From contig NZ_WNXY01000008.1 of NCBI RefSeq assembly GCF_009733815.1, positions 248,001-312,000 of the forward strand: DNA of 64,000 bases. Direction: 5' to 3'. The position numbers were made by a program, and so were the translations under genes. The stretch is from Pseudactinotalea suaedae. GTDB lineage: Bacteria > Actinomycetota > Actinomycetes > Actinomycetales > Beutenbergiaceae. This document shows positions 3,461 to 13,210 of this stretch, one piece after another (the stretch's first letter is position 1; every line of letters starts with the position of its first letter). The notes under the pieces were generated by a model. The model saw only the letters and a list, made by a program, of their open reading frames with translations. It was not told the DNA's origin and made no database searches.

Positions 3461-5220
3461 TGGCGACCGTCGCACCCTCCACGCGCCCCCGCGCCGGCCG
3501 CAACAGCGAGCTCGGGCTGCTCGCGATCGCGCTCGCCGTCGGCGTCGCCGCGTACGCGATCGTGGGTCTGAACCTCGACGGCGTGGTCCCGGTCGATCTC
3601 GTGCGTCACGTCGGGATCCTGGTCGTGCTGACCGTGGTGCTGCACCTCGTGATGCGCTGGCGCGCGCCGAACGCCGACCCGGTGATGCTGCCCGTGGTGG
3701 CCGCGCTCAACGGGCTGGGCCTGGCGATGATCTACCGGATCGACCAGCCGCTGGCCGAGCGTGGGCTGCGGGCGGGCTTCGCCGAGCGACAGCTGGTCTG
3801 GACGATCATCGGGATCGTGCTGGCGATCGCGGTGCTGGCGCTGCTGCGCGACCACCGCACGCTGCGGCGCTACCCGTTCCTGGCGATGATCGCCGGCCTC
3901 GCGCTGCTGTGCCTGCCGATGGCGCCGTTCATCGGGCAGACGATCAACGGCGCACGGCTGTGGATCAACGTGGCCGGGTTCTCGTTCCAGCCGGCCGAGG
4001 TCGCCAAGATCCTGCTGGCGATCTTCTTCGCCGGGTACTTCGTGAACCGGCGCGACGCGCTGACGCTCGCAGGCAACAAGATGCTGGGCCTGCACCTGCC
4101 GCGGTTCGCCGACCTGGCGCCGATCGTGGTGATCTGGGTCGTCAGCGTGGGTGTGCTGGTGGTCGAGCGGGACCTCGGCACCTCGCTGCTGTTCTTCGGC
4201 CTGTTCGTGGCGATGCTCTACGTCGCCACCGAGAAGGTCAGCTGGATCTTCATCGGTCTGCTGCTGGTGGGCGTGGGCGTGGTCTTCGCCTACTCGACGT
4301 TCGACTATGTGGCGGCCCGGTTCGACGTGTGGCTGAACGCGCTCGACTCCGAGATCTACAACCGCGACCCCGGCGGCTCCGGCCAGTTGGTGCGCGGGCT
4401 GTTCGGGCTCGCGGCCGGTGGCCTGATGGGCACGGGCCTCGGCCTGGGCCACCCGGACCTGGTGCCCTACGCGAACTCCGACTTCATCGTCGCGAGCCTG
4501 GGCGAGGAGCTGGGGCTCACCGGCCTGGTCGCGATCCTCATGCTGTACCTGGTGCTCGCCCAGCGCGGCCTGCGCGCCGCGATCGGGGTGCGTGACGGCT
4601 TCGGCAAGCTGCTCGCCTCGGGTTTCGCCTTCGTGATCGCGTTCCAGGTGTTCGTGGTGGTCGGCGGCGTGACGCGGCTGATCCCGCTCACGGGTCTCAC
4701 CATGCCGTTCATGGCGGCCGGCGGCTCCTCGCTGGTGGCGAACTGGATCATCGTGGCGATCCTGCTGCGGATCTCCGACGCCGCGCGCCGCCCCGCCCCG
4801 GCCGGCGCCGGTTCGGTGGTCGGCAACGAGACCGCCCTGATCGCGCTGGGCGACGTCGCCCCCGCCGACCCCGTCCCGGCGTCCGTGCCCTCAGTACCGG
4901 CCCGCCCCTCCGCCTTCGGCTGGGACGACGTCGAACCCGAGCCCAACACCTTCGCCAGCTCCCGCACCGAGCTCATCGACCACCGTGAAGAGCGGCCAAC
5001 CAACGCCGTCGGCCATGAATCGAACCCGGCCGACACGACAGGTGACCAACAAGGCGGGCCGGGGACGTCTCGCGCGACGCTGGATGGGCCTGGCGGGAGC
5101 GAGCGAGGAACGAGCGAGCGGATGGTTGGCGTCGCGCGAGACGTCCCCGGTCCGCCGGACCAGACCTCGACGAGCGACGCTGACGACGATGACAACCCCA
5201 CGGAGGTGGTGAAGCGATGA
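3460..5220 (+). CDS. rodA: FtsW/RodA/SpoVE-family peptidoglycan glycosyltransferase
   Basis: 586 residues. About ten to twelve transmembrane helices span residues 15-445 and carry the SEDS signatures (GARLWINV..FQPAEVAK, ERDLGTS). It polymerises lipid II together with the adjacent class B PBP (pbpA). The hydrophobic core ends near residue 445, so the roughly 140-residue soluble tail is unusually long. Part of the tail, residues 533-564, is encoded by a palindromic element (5059-5150) with a relative at 13098-13210. The stop overlaps the pbpA start (ATGA). Confidence 0.93.
   Translation: MATVAPSTRPRAGRNSELGLLAIALAVGVAAYAIVGLNLDGVVPVDLVRHVGILVVLTVVLHLVMRWRAPNADPVMLPVVAALNGLGLAMIYRIDQPLAERGLRAGFAERQLVWTIIGIVLAIAVLALLRDHRTLRRYPFLAMIAGLALLCLPMAPFIGQTINGARLWINVAGFSFQPAEVAKILLAIFFAGYFVNRRDALTLAGNKMLGLHLPRFADLAPIVVIWVVSVGVLVVERDLGTSLLFFGLFVAMLYVATEKVSWIFIGLLLVGVGVVFAYSTFDYVAARFDVWLNALDSEIYNRDPGGSGQLVRGLFGLAAGGLMGTGLGLGHPDLVPYANSDFIVASLGEELGLTGLVAILMLYLVLAQRGLRAAIGVRDGFGKLLASGFAFVIAFQVFVVVGGVTRLIPLTGLTMPFMAAGGSSLVANWIIVAILLRISDAARRPAPAGAGSVVGNETALIALGDVAPADPVPASVPSVPARPSAFGWDDVEPEPNTFASSRTELIDHREERPTNAVGHESNPADTTGDQQGGPGTSRATLDGPGGSERGTSERMVGVARDVPGPPDQTSTSDADDDDNPTEVVKR
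5059..5150. repeat. Long palindromic element, copy 1 (inside rodA)
   Basis: The left arm (5059-5080) and right arm (5129-5150) are perfect 22-bp reverse complements, with a 48-nt interior. The interior shares TGGATGGGCCTGGCGGGAGC and GCGAGGAACGAGCG with the intergenic element at 13098-13210. Here the element is read in frame as part of the RodA C-terminal tail, with no stop codon. Confidence 0.85.
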
Positions 5221-6680
5221 ACTCCCCGCTGCGCCGCCTCTCCATCGTGATGCTCGCGATGTTCGTGCTGCTCATGGGCAACGCCTCGTGGGTCCAGTAC
5301 GGGCAGGCGGGTGCGCTCAACGACGACCCGCGCAACGTGCGCACGATCTACCGCGAGTACGGGCAGGACCGTGGCCCGATCGTCGTGGCGGGCACGCCGG
5401 TCGCGTTCTCCGAGCCCGTCGACGACCCGTTCGGGTTCCAGCGGATCTATGCGAACGGTCCGCTGTACGCGCCCGTGACCGGGCACTTCTCGGTGGTCTT
5501 CTCCAGTACCGGCATCGAGGACAAGGGCAACGCCGTGCTCAACGGCACCGACTCCTCGTTGCTGTTCCAGCGCATCCAGCAGCTGTTCACCGGTGGCAGC
5601 CAGCAGGGTGGCGCCGTCGAGGTCACGATCGACCCCGCGGCGCAGCAGGCGGCATGGGACCTGCTCGGCGACCAGCGCGGTGCGGTCGTGGCGCTCGACC
5701 CCAAGACCGGCGCGATCCTCGCGATGGTGAGCAAGCCGAGCTACGACCCGAACGTGCTCGCCGGTCACAGCACGAGCGAGGTCAACGCCGCCTGGCAGCA
5801 GCTTCTCGAGGACCCGACCGACCCGATGATCAACCGCACGATCGCGGGCGACCTGTACGCGCCGGGGTCCACGTTCAAGCTGGTCGACACCGCGATGCTG
5901 CTGGAGTCGGGGGACTTCACGCCCGACAGCGAGGTGCCCGCACCCACGGTCTACACCCCGCCGGGCACCAGCACCGGGATCAGGAACCCCGGCGGTGCGG
6001 TCTGCGGGAACGGCACCACCGCCACGCTGACCGAGGCGCTCCGGGTCTCCTGCAACACCCCGTTCGCCCAGCTCGCGGTGCAGCTCGGCCCGGAGGCGCT
6101 GCAGGACCAGGCGCAGGCGTTCGGGTTCGGCCAGGACCTCGCGATCCCGATGACGGTCACGCCGAGCACGCTGGGCTCGGACTTCGACGCCAACGACCCC
6201 GCGCTCGCGCAGACCGCCATCGGGCAGCGCAGCGTGCGCGTCACGCCGATGCAGATGGCGATGGTCGTGGCCTCGATCGCCAACGGCGGCGTGCTGATGC
6301 ACCCGTACCTGGTGGCGACCGAGCGCGGCCCGAACCTCGACGTGGTCGCCGAGACCCAGCCGAGCGTGTTCTCACGCCCGGTGTCGGCCTCGACCGCCTC
6401 GCTGATGACCCAGATGATGGTCAACGTCGTGGACAACGGCACAGGATGGCCGGGACAGGTTCCCGGCGTGTCGGTGGCCGGAAAGACCGGTACGGCCCAG
6501 TCTGGTGTCGAGGGTGTGGCACCGACGGCGTGGTTCACGGCGTTCGCTCCGGCGGACGACCCGCAGATCGCGATCGCGGTCGTGGTGGAGGAGGGCGGCG
6601 ACCTCGGAGACGAGGCCACCGGCGCCAGGGTGGCGGCACCGATTGCCGCGGGGGTCATCGAGGCGGTGCTGGGGGAATGA
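5217..6680 (+). CDS. pbpA: Class B penicillin-binding protein PbpA (transpeptidase)
   Basis: 487 residues with an N-terminal signal anchor (about 8-26). The transpeptidase domain carries the active-site motifs STFK (Ser218, Lys221), SCN (278-280) and KTG (423-425). It cross-links peptidoglycan as partner of the SEDS protein encoded just upstream. The start overlaps the rodA stop and the stop overlaps the pknA start, both as ATGA, consistent with translational coupling. The length is normal for actinobacterial PbpA. Confidence 0.95.
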   Translation: MNSPLRRLSIVMLAMFVLLMGNASWVQYGQAGALNDDPRNVRTIYREYGQDRGPIVVAGTPVAFSEPVDDPFGFQRIYANGPLYAPVTGHFSVVFSSTGIEDKGNAVLNGTDSSLLFQRIQQLFTGGSQQGGAVEVTIDPAAQQAAWDLLGDQRGAVVALDPKTGAILAMVSKPSYDPNVLAGHSTSEVNAAWQQLLEDPTDPMINRTIAGDLYAPGSTFKLVDTAMLLESGDFTPDSEVPAPTVYTPPGTSTGIRNPGGAVCGNGTTATLTEALRVSCNTPFAQLAVQLGPEALQDQAQAFGFGQDLAIPMTVTPSTLGSDFDANDPALAQTAIGQRSVRVTPMQMAMVVASIANGGVLMHPYLVATERGPNLDVVAETQPSVFSRPVSASTASLMTQMMVNVVDNGTGWPGQVPGVSVAGKTGTAQSGVEGVAPTAWFTAFAPADDPQIAIAVVVEEGGDLGDEATGARVAAPIAAGVIEAVLGE

Positions 6681-13049: not shown

Positions 13050-13097
13050 GGGTTTCCGTCTGACCTGAGTTGCGGGTGGTGTTGCTCGTTCTCGTCC

Positions 13098-13210
13098 GGG
13101 TCGCCGGGACATGTGTGCGCGACGCGACCATCCGCACGGTCCGCTCGTTCCTCGCTCCCCGTGCTCCCGCCAGGCCCATCCAGCGTCGCGCACACATATC
13201 CCGGTGACCC
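13098..13210. repeat. Long palindromic element, copy 2 (intergenic)
   Basis: Arms 13098-13125 and 13183-13210 are 28 bp with two mismatches, around a 57-nt interior. On the minus strand the interior carries TGGATGGGCCTGGCGGGAGC, GCGAGGAACGAGCG and GCGGATGGT, all shared with the rodA copy. It lies between convergent crgA and the ceramidase-like gene. The outer part of the arms differs from copy 1, but both arms differ together. Confidence 0.85.

What the first reader, a model, noticed from the sequence alone, without database searches (positions are those of the whole stretch)
5059..13210. Two relatives of a long palindromic element with co-varying arms, one read in frame inside rodA
The elements at 5059-5150 and 13098-13210 share the interior blocks TGGATGGGCCTGGCGGGAGC, GCGAGGAACGAGCG and GCGGATGGT, and the inner arm GCGCGACGC. 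The outer arms differ (GGGACGTCTC against GGGACATGTGT), but within each copy both arms changed together, so pairing is kept (22/22 and 26/28 bp). Such compensation implies selection on, or a copying mechanism that preserves, the hairpin. One copy adds about 31 residues to the RodA tail without a stop or frameshift. This looks like an undescribed REP- or MITE-like family.
Basis: partly seen in the sequence, partly recalled or inferred. Interest (0 to 1): 0.75.

Follow-up and report, generated by a model that had tools for sequence, protein, structure and literature searches.

The report
Actinobacterial hairpin repeats with rewritten arms
Two matching DNA hairpins in this genome belong to a family, apparently undescribed, that recurs in many actinobacteria: a short loop sequence is conserved while the long arms are rewritten but keep pairing, which suggests that the folded shape, not the arm sequence, is what matters.

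Summary
Both elements are 28-pair stems around one conserved core, TGGMTGGGNCTGGCGGGAG ... CGGATGG. The genome holds six copies; the core recurs in 15 named actinobacterial genera, patchily (30 of 396 genomes of the order). Outer arms of different copies are unrelated (36% pairing if swapped) yet pair within each copy (92%). At 12 orthologous sites, 82 of 113 changed stem pairs changed on both sides and still pair. Remaining mismatches are strand-specific (G.U 58 against A.C 12; G.A 48 against C.T 5), also where both neighbouring genes run the other way, so the folded core-bearing strand seems to be what is kept. Copies favour convergent gene ends, lack U-tracts, match no Rfam family, and stand between gyrB and gyrA in several genera. 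Cellulosimicrobium shows a recent burst of near-identical copies. No Y1 (RAYT-type) transposase was found in 28 genomes, so these are not classical REPs. In-frame reading inside the rodA-like gene is shared by the three species held but unsurprising (83% of frames are open). Best reading: a REP/MITE-like dispersed hairpin recognised as a folded single strand; the agent is unknown.

The parts
5053..5156 (+). Copy 1, whole hairpin element, inside the 3' end of a rodA/ftsW-type (SEDS) gene, read in frame
5053..5080 (+). Copy 1 left arm (28 bp)
5081..5100 (+). Copy 1 conserved block TGGATGGGCCTGGCGGGAGC
5101..5119 (+). Copy 1 inner variable region P2 with GAGGAACGA
5120..5125 (+). Copy 1 conserved block GGATGG
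5129..5156 (+). Copy 1 right arm (28 bp)
13098..13210 (-). Copy 2, whole hairpin element, 48 bp after the crgA stop codon and facing a convergent reading frame (13289-14596 -)
13183..13210 (-). Copy 2 left arm (28 bp, read on the - strand)
13163..13182 (-). Copy 2 conserved block TGGATGGGCCTGGCGGGAGC
13128..13133 (-). Copy 2 conserved block GGATGG
13098..13125 (-). Copy 2 right arm (28 bp)

Best explanation
The two elements are copies of a dispersed, mostly non-coding hairpin repeat of Actinomycetes that behaves like a REP or MITE: apparently non-autonomous, one to about fifty copies per genome, mostly near gene 3' ends. Shown: a conserved asymmetric internal loop (TGGMTGGGNCTGGCGGGAG on one side, CGGATGG on the other) sits between a long outer stem (P1) and a short inner stem (P2), both free in sequence but held to pairing; the mismatches that survive are those tolerated by a fold of one strand only (the strand with TGGMTGGG). 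Inferred: an unknown protein recognises that strand when it is folded as a single strand (most likely DNA exposed in replication, possibly a transcript), reading the unpaired conserved loop and needing the arms only to pair; this recognition spreads copies in bursts and/or keeps them at old sites. Paired arm changes are probably made partly in one step, by template switching between the arms.
For: Six own copies with one core and unrelated outer arms that pair. Core with variable P1 and P2 in 79 pattern matches from 15 named genera plus unnamed MAGs (the core is fixed there by the search pattern). Pairing of bp 9-24: 92% within a copy, 36% between copies, 101 non-redundant copies. Formal covariation on 16 sequences: score 0.373 against 0.116 shuffled, 0 of 500. 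Twelve orthologous sites: 82 of 113 changed pairs changed on both sides and pair. Strand-specific mismatches G.U 58/A.C 12, G.A 48/C.T 5, GG 29/CC 4; 50 copies lean one way, 4 the other; without Cellulosimicrobium 34 against 3; also where both neighbours are read on the other strand (17 '--' copies: G.U 9, A.C 1, G.A 7, C.T 0). Recent burst in Cellulosimicrobium: 37 non-redundant copies with the same arms among those fetched, one of them lacking in a sister genome. Patchy spread: 30 of 396 genomes.
Against: No mobilising enzyme was found: Y1_Tnp 0 of 28 genomes; other recombinases were not searched genome-wide. No clean target-site duplication seen. No match in viral contigs, phages or plasmids. 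Sites shared between genera (gyrB-gyrA, rsmG-parA) are unusual for a selfish repeat. The strand asymmetry is absent in the 10 copies called inside same-strand frames (G.U 2, A.C 2) and could be mutational. Orientation relative to replication, which single-stranded DNA models predict, is only weakly biased in the one genome examined (14 against 6).
Confidence: 0.48

Rival explanations
1. A structured RNA or RNA-level 3'-end device: transcripts of the neighbouring genes fold into the hairpin, which ends transcription from both sides, blocks read-through, or protects mRNA ends.
For: Copies favour convergent gene ends (22 of 42 element gaps against 67 of 294 background gaps, Fisher p=1.3e-4) and avoid divergent ones (2 of 42 against 63 of 294) (crude gene calls); the right arm mostly lies 5-70 bp after the stop codon of a right-hand gene that faces it; at two Knoellia sites and one Isoptericola site some relatives have, by eye, a different long hairpin in the same place. 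Slight T enrichment on the - strand just past the left arm (0.255 against 0.177). RNA folds tolerate G.U.
Against: No U-tract: TTT within 12 nt in 0 of 100 (+ strand) and 2 of 98 (- strand). The strand that keeps its pairing is the antisense strand in '--' contexts, including gyrB-gyrA, where the G.T pairs of three copies would be A.C in the mRNA. Copy 1 lies inside a gene followed by an overlapping gene. No Rfam match.
Confidence: 0.24
2. Selection plays no part: dispersed palindromes are kept paired by replication template switching between their own arms, which copies any change in one arm into the other.
For: Changes are overwhelmingly two-sided (82 of 113); template switching can create and maintain perfect stems (PMC8794818, abstract and section 8 read). 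At the rodA-like site the arms are rewritten between G000 and G001 while the core is 85% identical.
Against: The mismatches that stay are strand-specific, which a symmetric copying process does not predict. Eight of 12 Isoptericola copies share the same uncorrected A.G mismatch in the inner arm (sequences). The core is conserved across genera without being palindromic, so something reads it.
Confidence: 0.18
3. A chromosome-structure or gyrase/nucleoid-protein binding site, used by the host like the BIMEs of enterobacteria (that role recalled, not looked up).
For: Placement between gyrB and gyrA in four genomes with long stems plus a fifth with a 6-bp stem, at rsmG-parA in Knoellia and beside rsmG in Janibacter, and after parB in Knoellia.
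Against: Patchy presence even inside the own family (4 of the 24 family members listed have hits); copy number from 1 to about 51; the neighbours named form no obvious regulon.
Confidence: 0.1

Closest known systems
REP sequences (GTAG- and CGTC-tagged palindromes, GTAG type held to be RAYT-mobilised)
   Same: Dispersed, palindromic, often near gene ends; CGTC REPs also seem to lack a dedicated transposase (PMC3733652, passages including parts of the abstract)
   Different: REPs are 20-40 bp (same paper, abstract start in the listing); these are about 100 bp with two stems and a conserved internal loop, outer arms unrelated between copies, and no Y1 transposase found in 28 genomes
MITEs, including Rickettsia palindromic elements (PMC10969869, passages)
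   Same: Short, apparently non-autonomous, bursts of near-identical copies, one own copy read in frame inside a gene
   Different: No target-site duplication or parent transposon found; long arms are copy-specific outside the Cellulosimicrobium burst
Structured non-coding RNAs with covarying stems
   Same: Architecture of two variable stems around a conserved internal loop, strong covariation
   Different: No Rfam match; orientation not tied to the neighbouring genes
Integron attC sites (recalled, not tested)
   Same: Recognised as one folded strand, sequence of the stem largely free
   Different: Here the loop is conserved and the stem varies; integrases were not searched for

Membership tests
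REP (GTAG/RAYT type) | RAYT (Y1) transposase in the genome | tested here: not met
   PF01797 in 0 of 28 genomes (E<=0.001), 23 of which carry the element; the same search rings in 5 of 14 control genomes
REP (GTAG/RAYT type) | 20-40 bp palindrome tagged GTAG or CGTC at one end | tested here: not met
   Length about 100 bp. The end tag was not scored
REP (GTAG/RAYT type) | Dispersed, mostly extragenic, multi-copy | tested here: met
   78 of 110 non-burst copies lie outside called frames (crude gene calls)
MITE | Terminal inverted repeats shared by copies | tested here: inconclusive
   Shared in the Cellulosimicrobium burst; in Isoptericola and Antribacter identity falls from 0.77-0.94 (bp 1-8) to about 0.46 (bp 13-24)
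MITE | Target-site duplication at insertion | tested here: inconclusive
   Sites without the element in G075, G079 and G081 differ too much to define a junction
MITE | Parent autonomous transposon | tested here: inconclusive
   Whole genomes were searched for Y1 only. In 76 loci, the recurrent protein clusters that I named are ABC transporters, kinases, FtsK/SpoIIIE, acyltransferases, biotin carboxylase, gyrase, ParA/ParB/RsmG; clusters beyond these were not named
Rickettsia palindromic element | Usually inserted in frame in coding genes | tested here: inconclusive
   One of six own copies is coding. Elsewhere 32 of 110 non-burst copies fall inside called frames, many probably spurious
Intrinsic terminator | U-tract after the hairpin | tested here: not met
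   0 of 100 and 2 of 98 with TTT in the first 12 nt
Rfam RNA family | Match to a curated covariance model | tested here: not met
   Window: two tRNAs only. Twelve loci at E<=5: five hits far below gathering scores (four to miRNA models, one to rpfG)

The most novel reading that the evidence does not exclude
A folded-single-strand genetic element in which shape is the address: a still unknown actinobacterial protein (not a Y1 transposase) recognises the conserved internal loop of one strand, arms are free to be rewritten at every site, and the same machinery both spreads copies and keeps ancient copies at core loci such as gyrB-gyrA.
Probability: 0.22. Interest if true: 0.85.

Novelty: new variant of a known kind. 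Interest (0 to 1): 0.6.

Why it matters
Here the arms are the least conserved part of a palindromic repeat and the internal loop the most conserved, so repeat finders that compare arm sequence would tend to miss the family. It gives a natural data set for separating selection from template switching as the cause of compensatory change, and it points to an unidentified strand-specific hairpin-recognising activity in Actinomycetes.

Tried and rejected
Insertion into pre-existing terminator hairpins: sites without the element that I could compare mostly show no uninterrupted version of the same arms. One exception can be read either way: at the Cellulosimicrobium site G077 has the outer arms joined without inner arms and core; I take it as a deletion because the burst's conserved flanks are present, but it could be an empty hairpin. 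Target-derived outer arms: first favoured because Isoptericola and Antribacter copies share inner arms and P2 but not the outer arms; weakened because similarity falls off gradually outward and orthologous copies also have rewritten arms. L212/L303, at first striking (flanks 96-99% identical, arms all different), was dropped as evidence of arm-only replacement because the whole intergenic stretch differs. Gene-specific regulon: not seen, neighbours are mixed. RAYT: not found. Phage or plasmid carriage: none found. Replication-strand bias in G067: 14 copies with the core strand on the presumed lagging strand against 6, from the 22 of 33 hits listed (two near the presumed terminus dropped), ori and ter placed from GC skew; two-sided binomial about 0.12, by hand; not used. 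In the A1 covariation test one measure was no better than shuffles (further pair types, 394 of 500) and one only moderately so (pairs with two-sided change, 22 of 500).

Rows dropped: of 175 unique hits, stems under 14 bp, the Cellulosimicrobium burst and copies sharing the last 16 bp of the left arm were left out, leaving 101-102. Hits with weak stems had been filtered before. For one search one pair per site was taken (12 sites). Left out: all burst pairs; further pairs at the same sites; L212/L303; L079/L078 and L110/L078 (L078 holds two copies); L134/L134; and near-identical pairs with few or no changes (L064/L115, L208/L228, L255/L285, L283/L211). In one search the register between copies was allowed to shift by up to 2, choosing the one with most identical pairs.
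Full report
What is in the window. Copy 1 (5053-5156, +) and copy 2 (13098-13210, -) are hairpins of 28 stem pairs around one core. Copy 1 lies inside the 3' end of a SEDS gene (3460-5220) that overlaps a penicillin-binding-protein gene by ATGA; NCBIfam ranks its protein FtsW 259 bits, RodA 190 bits, both below cut-off, so 'rodA' rests on the partner gene. Copy 2 begins 48 bp after crgA. Folded as single-stranded DNA, both strands of both copies are far more stable than shuffles.

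How many. The own genome (4.54 Mb, 21 contigs) has six copies. The gene to the right of the core (core strand as plus) is the penicillin-binding-protein gene for copy 1, crgA for copy 2, and for the other four yebC (ruvC on the other side), rpoC, ligA and a histidine-kinase-like gene. Genus-mates G001 and G002 have 4 and 3 model hits. G001 is Pseudactinotalea terrae, judged by an identical element and equal contig length, so the window's genus is probably Pseudactinotalea. A pattern scan of 84,980 species genomes gave 76 stretches and 79 matches in 15 named genera (Jatrophihabitans and Microlunatus only as MAGs) plus unnamed MAGs, among them Knoellia, Janibacter, Isoptericola, Antribacter, Cellulosimicrobium, Leucobacter, Mobilicoccus, Nocardioides and Actinomyces oris. 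Ten of the 79 show stems under 10 bp, some of them because a contig ends or the register differs. In the order, 30 of 396 genomes and 13 of 109 genera have hits at E<=1e-5, with filters that lose weak matches. Two single hits of the mismatch scan, in G013 and G044, show no hairpin and are taken as chance.

Anatomy. From outside in: stem P1 (149 of 175 hits have 20 bp or more, after weak stems were filtered out), TGGMTGGGNCTGGCGGGAG, P2 (any sequence, often with GAGGAACGA), CGGATGG, a few nt, P1'. In the pattern-derived set the core is fixed by the search. Relaxed hits show variants: TGG-CGGGCC in Cellulosimicrobium and GAGTGG for GGATGG, for instance in the two sister copies at the rodA-like site.

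Covariation. Bases 9-24 of the arms pair at 92% within copies and 36% between copies; bases 1-8 at 95% against 49% (101 copies). A formal count on 16 aligned copies gives covariation 0.373 against 0.116 shuffled (0 of 500), and all slid versions score 0.123 or less; the number of further pair types was no better than shuffled.

Evolution at fixed sites. Pairs of copies with matching flanks on both sides identify orthologous sites. At the rodA-like gene (three species), between gyrB and gyrA (Knoellia, Nostocoides, a Jatrophihabitans MAG and a Micrococcales MAG with stems of 20-30 bp; a Microlunatus MAG copy has a 6-bp stem), at rsmG-parA and elsewhere, the arms are rewritten and still pair. 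Over 12 sites, one pair each, the core (with P2) is 83-98% identical, and of 272 stem pairs 159 are unchanged, 82 changed on both sides and paired, 16 changed on one side to a wobble, 10 on one side to a mismatch, and 5 on both sides to a mismatch. Near-identical pairs with few changes were left out.

Strand asymmetry. Scored without favouring any mismatch, arm positions 9 and beyond in 102 copies hold G.U 58 against A.C 12, G.A 48 against C.T 5, and GG 29 against CC 4, read on the core strand. Without Cellulosimicrobium, which shares mismatches by descent, the sums are 41/10, 24/5 and 17/3, and 34 copies lean one way against 3 the other. This order matches the stability of mismatches in a folded strand (recalled). 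It also holds where both neighbours run against the core strand: 17 copies, G.U 9 against A.C 1; but not in 10 copies called inside same-strand frames, G.U 2 against A.C 2. So the folded core strand seems to be what is kept, and it is not simply the neighbours' mRNA. A strand-biased mutation process is not excluded.

Where. Element-bearing gaps: 22 convergent, 18 same-direction, 2 divergent; background gaps 67, 164, 63. By the same crude gene caller 32 of 110 non-burst copies fall inside a called frame, many probably spurious. No U-tract follows on either strand; the - strand past the left arm is slightly T-richer than background.

Movement. In three Cellulosimicrobium genomes 37 non-redundant fetched copies have the same arms and core, with about 35-40 bp of similar flank on either side. 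At one site the sister G075 has none, G077 has the outer arms joined without the core, and G076 a remnant. Contigs often end at copies in G052 and G069, as expected of strong hairpins or repeats. Y1 transposases were found in 0 of 28 genomes. Nothing was found in viral contigs by exact pattern, or in plasmids or phages by BLAST of copy 1.

The copy in the rodA-like gene. The three genus members held read the element in the same frame (peptide LDGPGG[ST]ERGTSE), with 146-154 residues after position 440; 19 relatives outside the genus have 27-96 residues there. Seventeen of the 19 lack even a 10-base core motif in the last 600 nt; in the other two (L371, L374) the motif matches but the tails are 33 and 32 residues, so it is probably chance. 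Since 83% of all frames through 100 copies are open, the open frame needs no special explanation, and whether the element was inserted or the tail grew around it is not shown.

Known kinds. REPs as described in PMC3733652 (passages read) are 20-40 bp and GTAG- or CGTC-tagged, so these are REP-like in behaviour but not members. Template switching as a maker of paired changes is described in PMC8794818 (abstract and section 8 read). In E. coli, inverted repeats cluster after stop codons, mostly as parts of intrinsic terminators (PMC6060812, passages read); the lack of U-tracts sets these apart. Rickettsia palindromic elements and MITEs were checked in PMC10969869 (passages read). I found no description of this family in searches (open-access papers only), or in Rfam.

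Verdict. A real, broadly but patchily spread and apparently undescribed hairpin family, REP/MITE-like in behaviour, with a conserved loop, free but paired arms and single-strand polarity. What reads it and what moves it are unknown.

Noticed in passing
L307:2926-3685 and 17430-17690; L060:980-1680: Cellulosimicrobium carries arrays of a 21-bp repeat (about GAGGTAGARCCNTGGTC) at gene ends, in inverted orientation on the two sides of the hairpin or of a small gene.
   Followed up: partly
L153, L158, L157, L143 (Knoellia and Janibacter intergenic sites): By eye, a second kind of long hairpin with arms like GACTNNTTGCNC and a loop like GAGGAGCGCAGCGACGA occupies places where K. flava has the present element.
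   Followed up: partly
L324 and L340 (Isoptericola relatives, orthologous to L320:12690-12930): Very long hairpins built from CGAGATAGAGA-type repeats stand between the same convergent genes where strain BMS4 has the present element.
   Followed up: no
L151 (Janibacter, site 1): A different hairpin seems to be interrupted by an insert of about 1.2 kb that looks like an insertion sequence; not identified.
   Followed up: no
G052 and G069 contig ends (L048, L052-L059, L229, L239): Draft assemblies break at copies, so copy numbers in drafts may be underestimates.
   Followed up: no
window 3460-5220: The 'rodA' protein scores higher to FtsW than to RodA models (both below cut-off) and has a long variable C-terminal tail ending in PTEVVKR.
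   Followed up: partly
window 32966-33038 and 33210-33283: Two tRNA genes on the - strand (the only Rfam gathering-level matches in the window).
   Followed up: no
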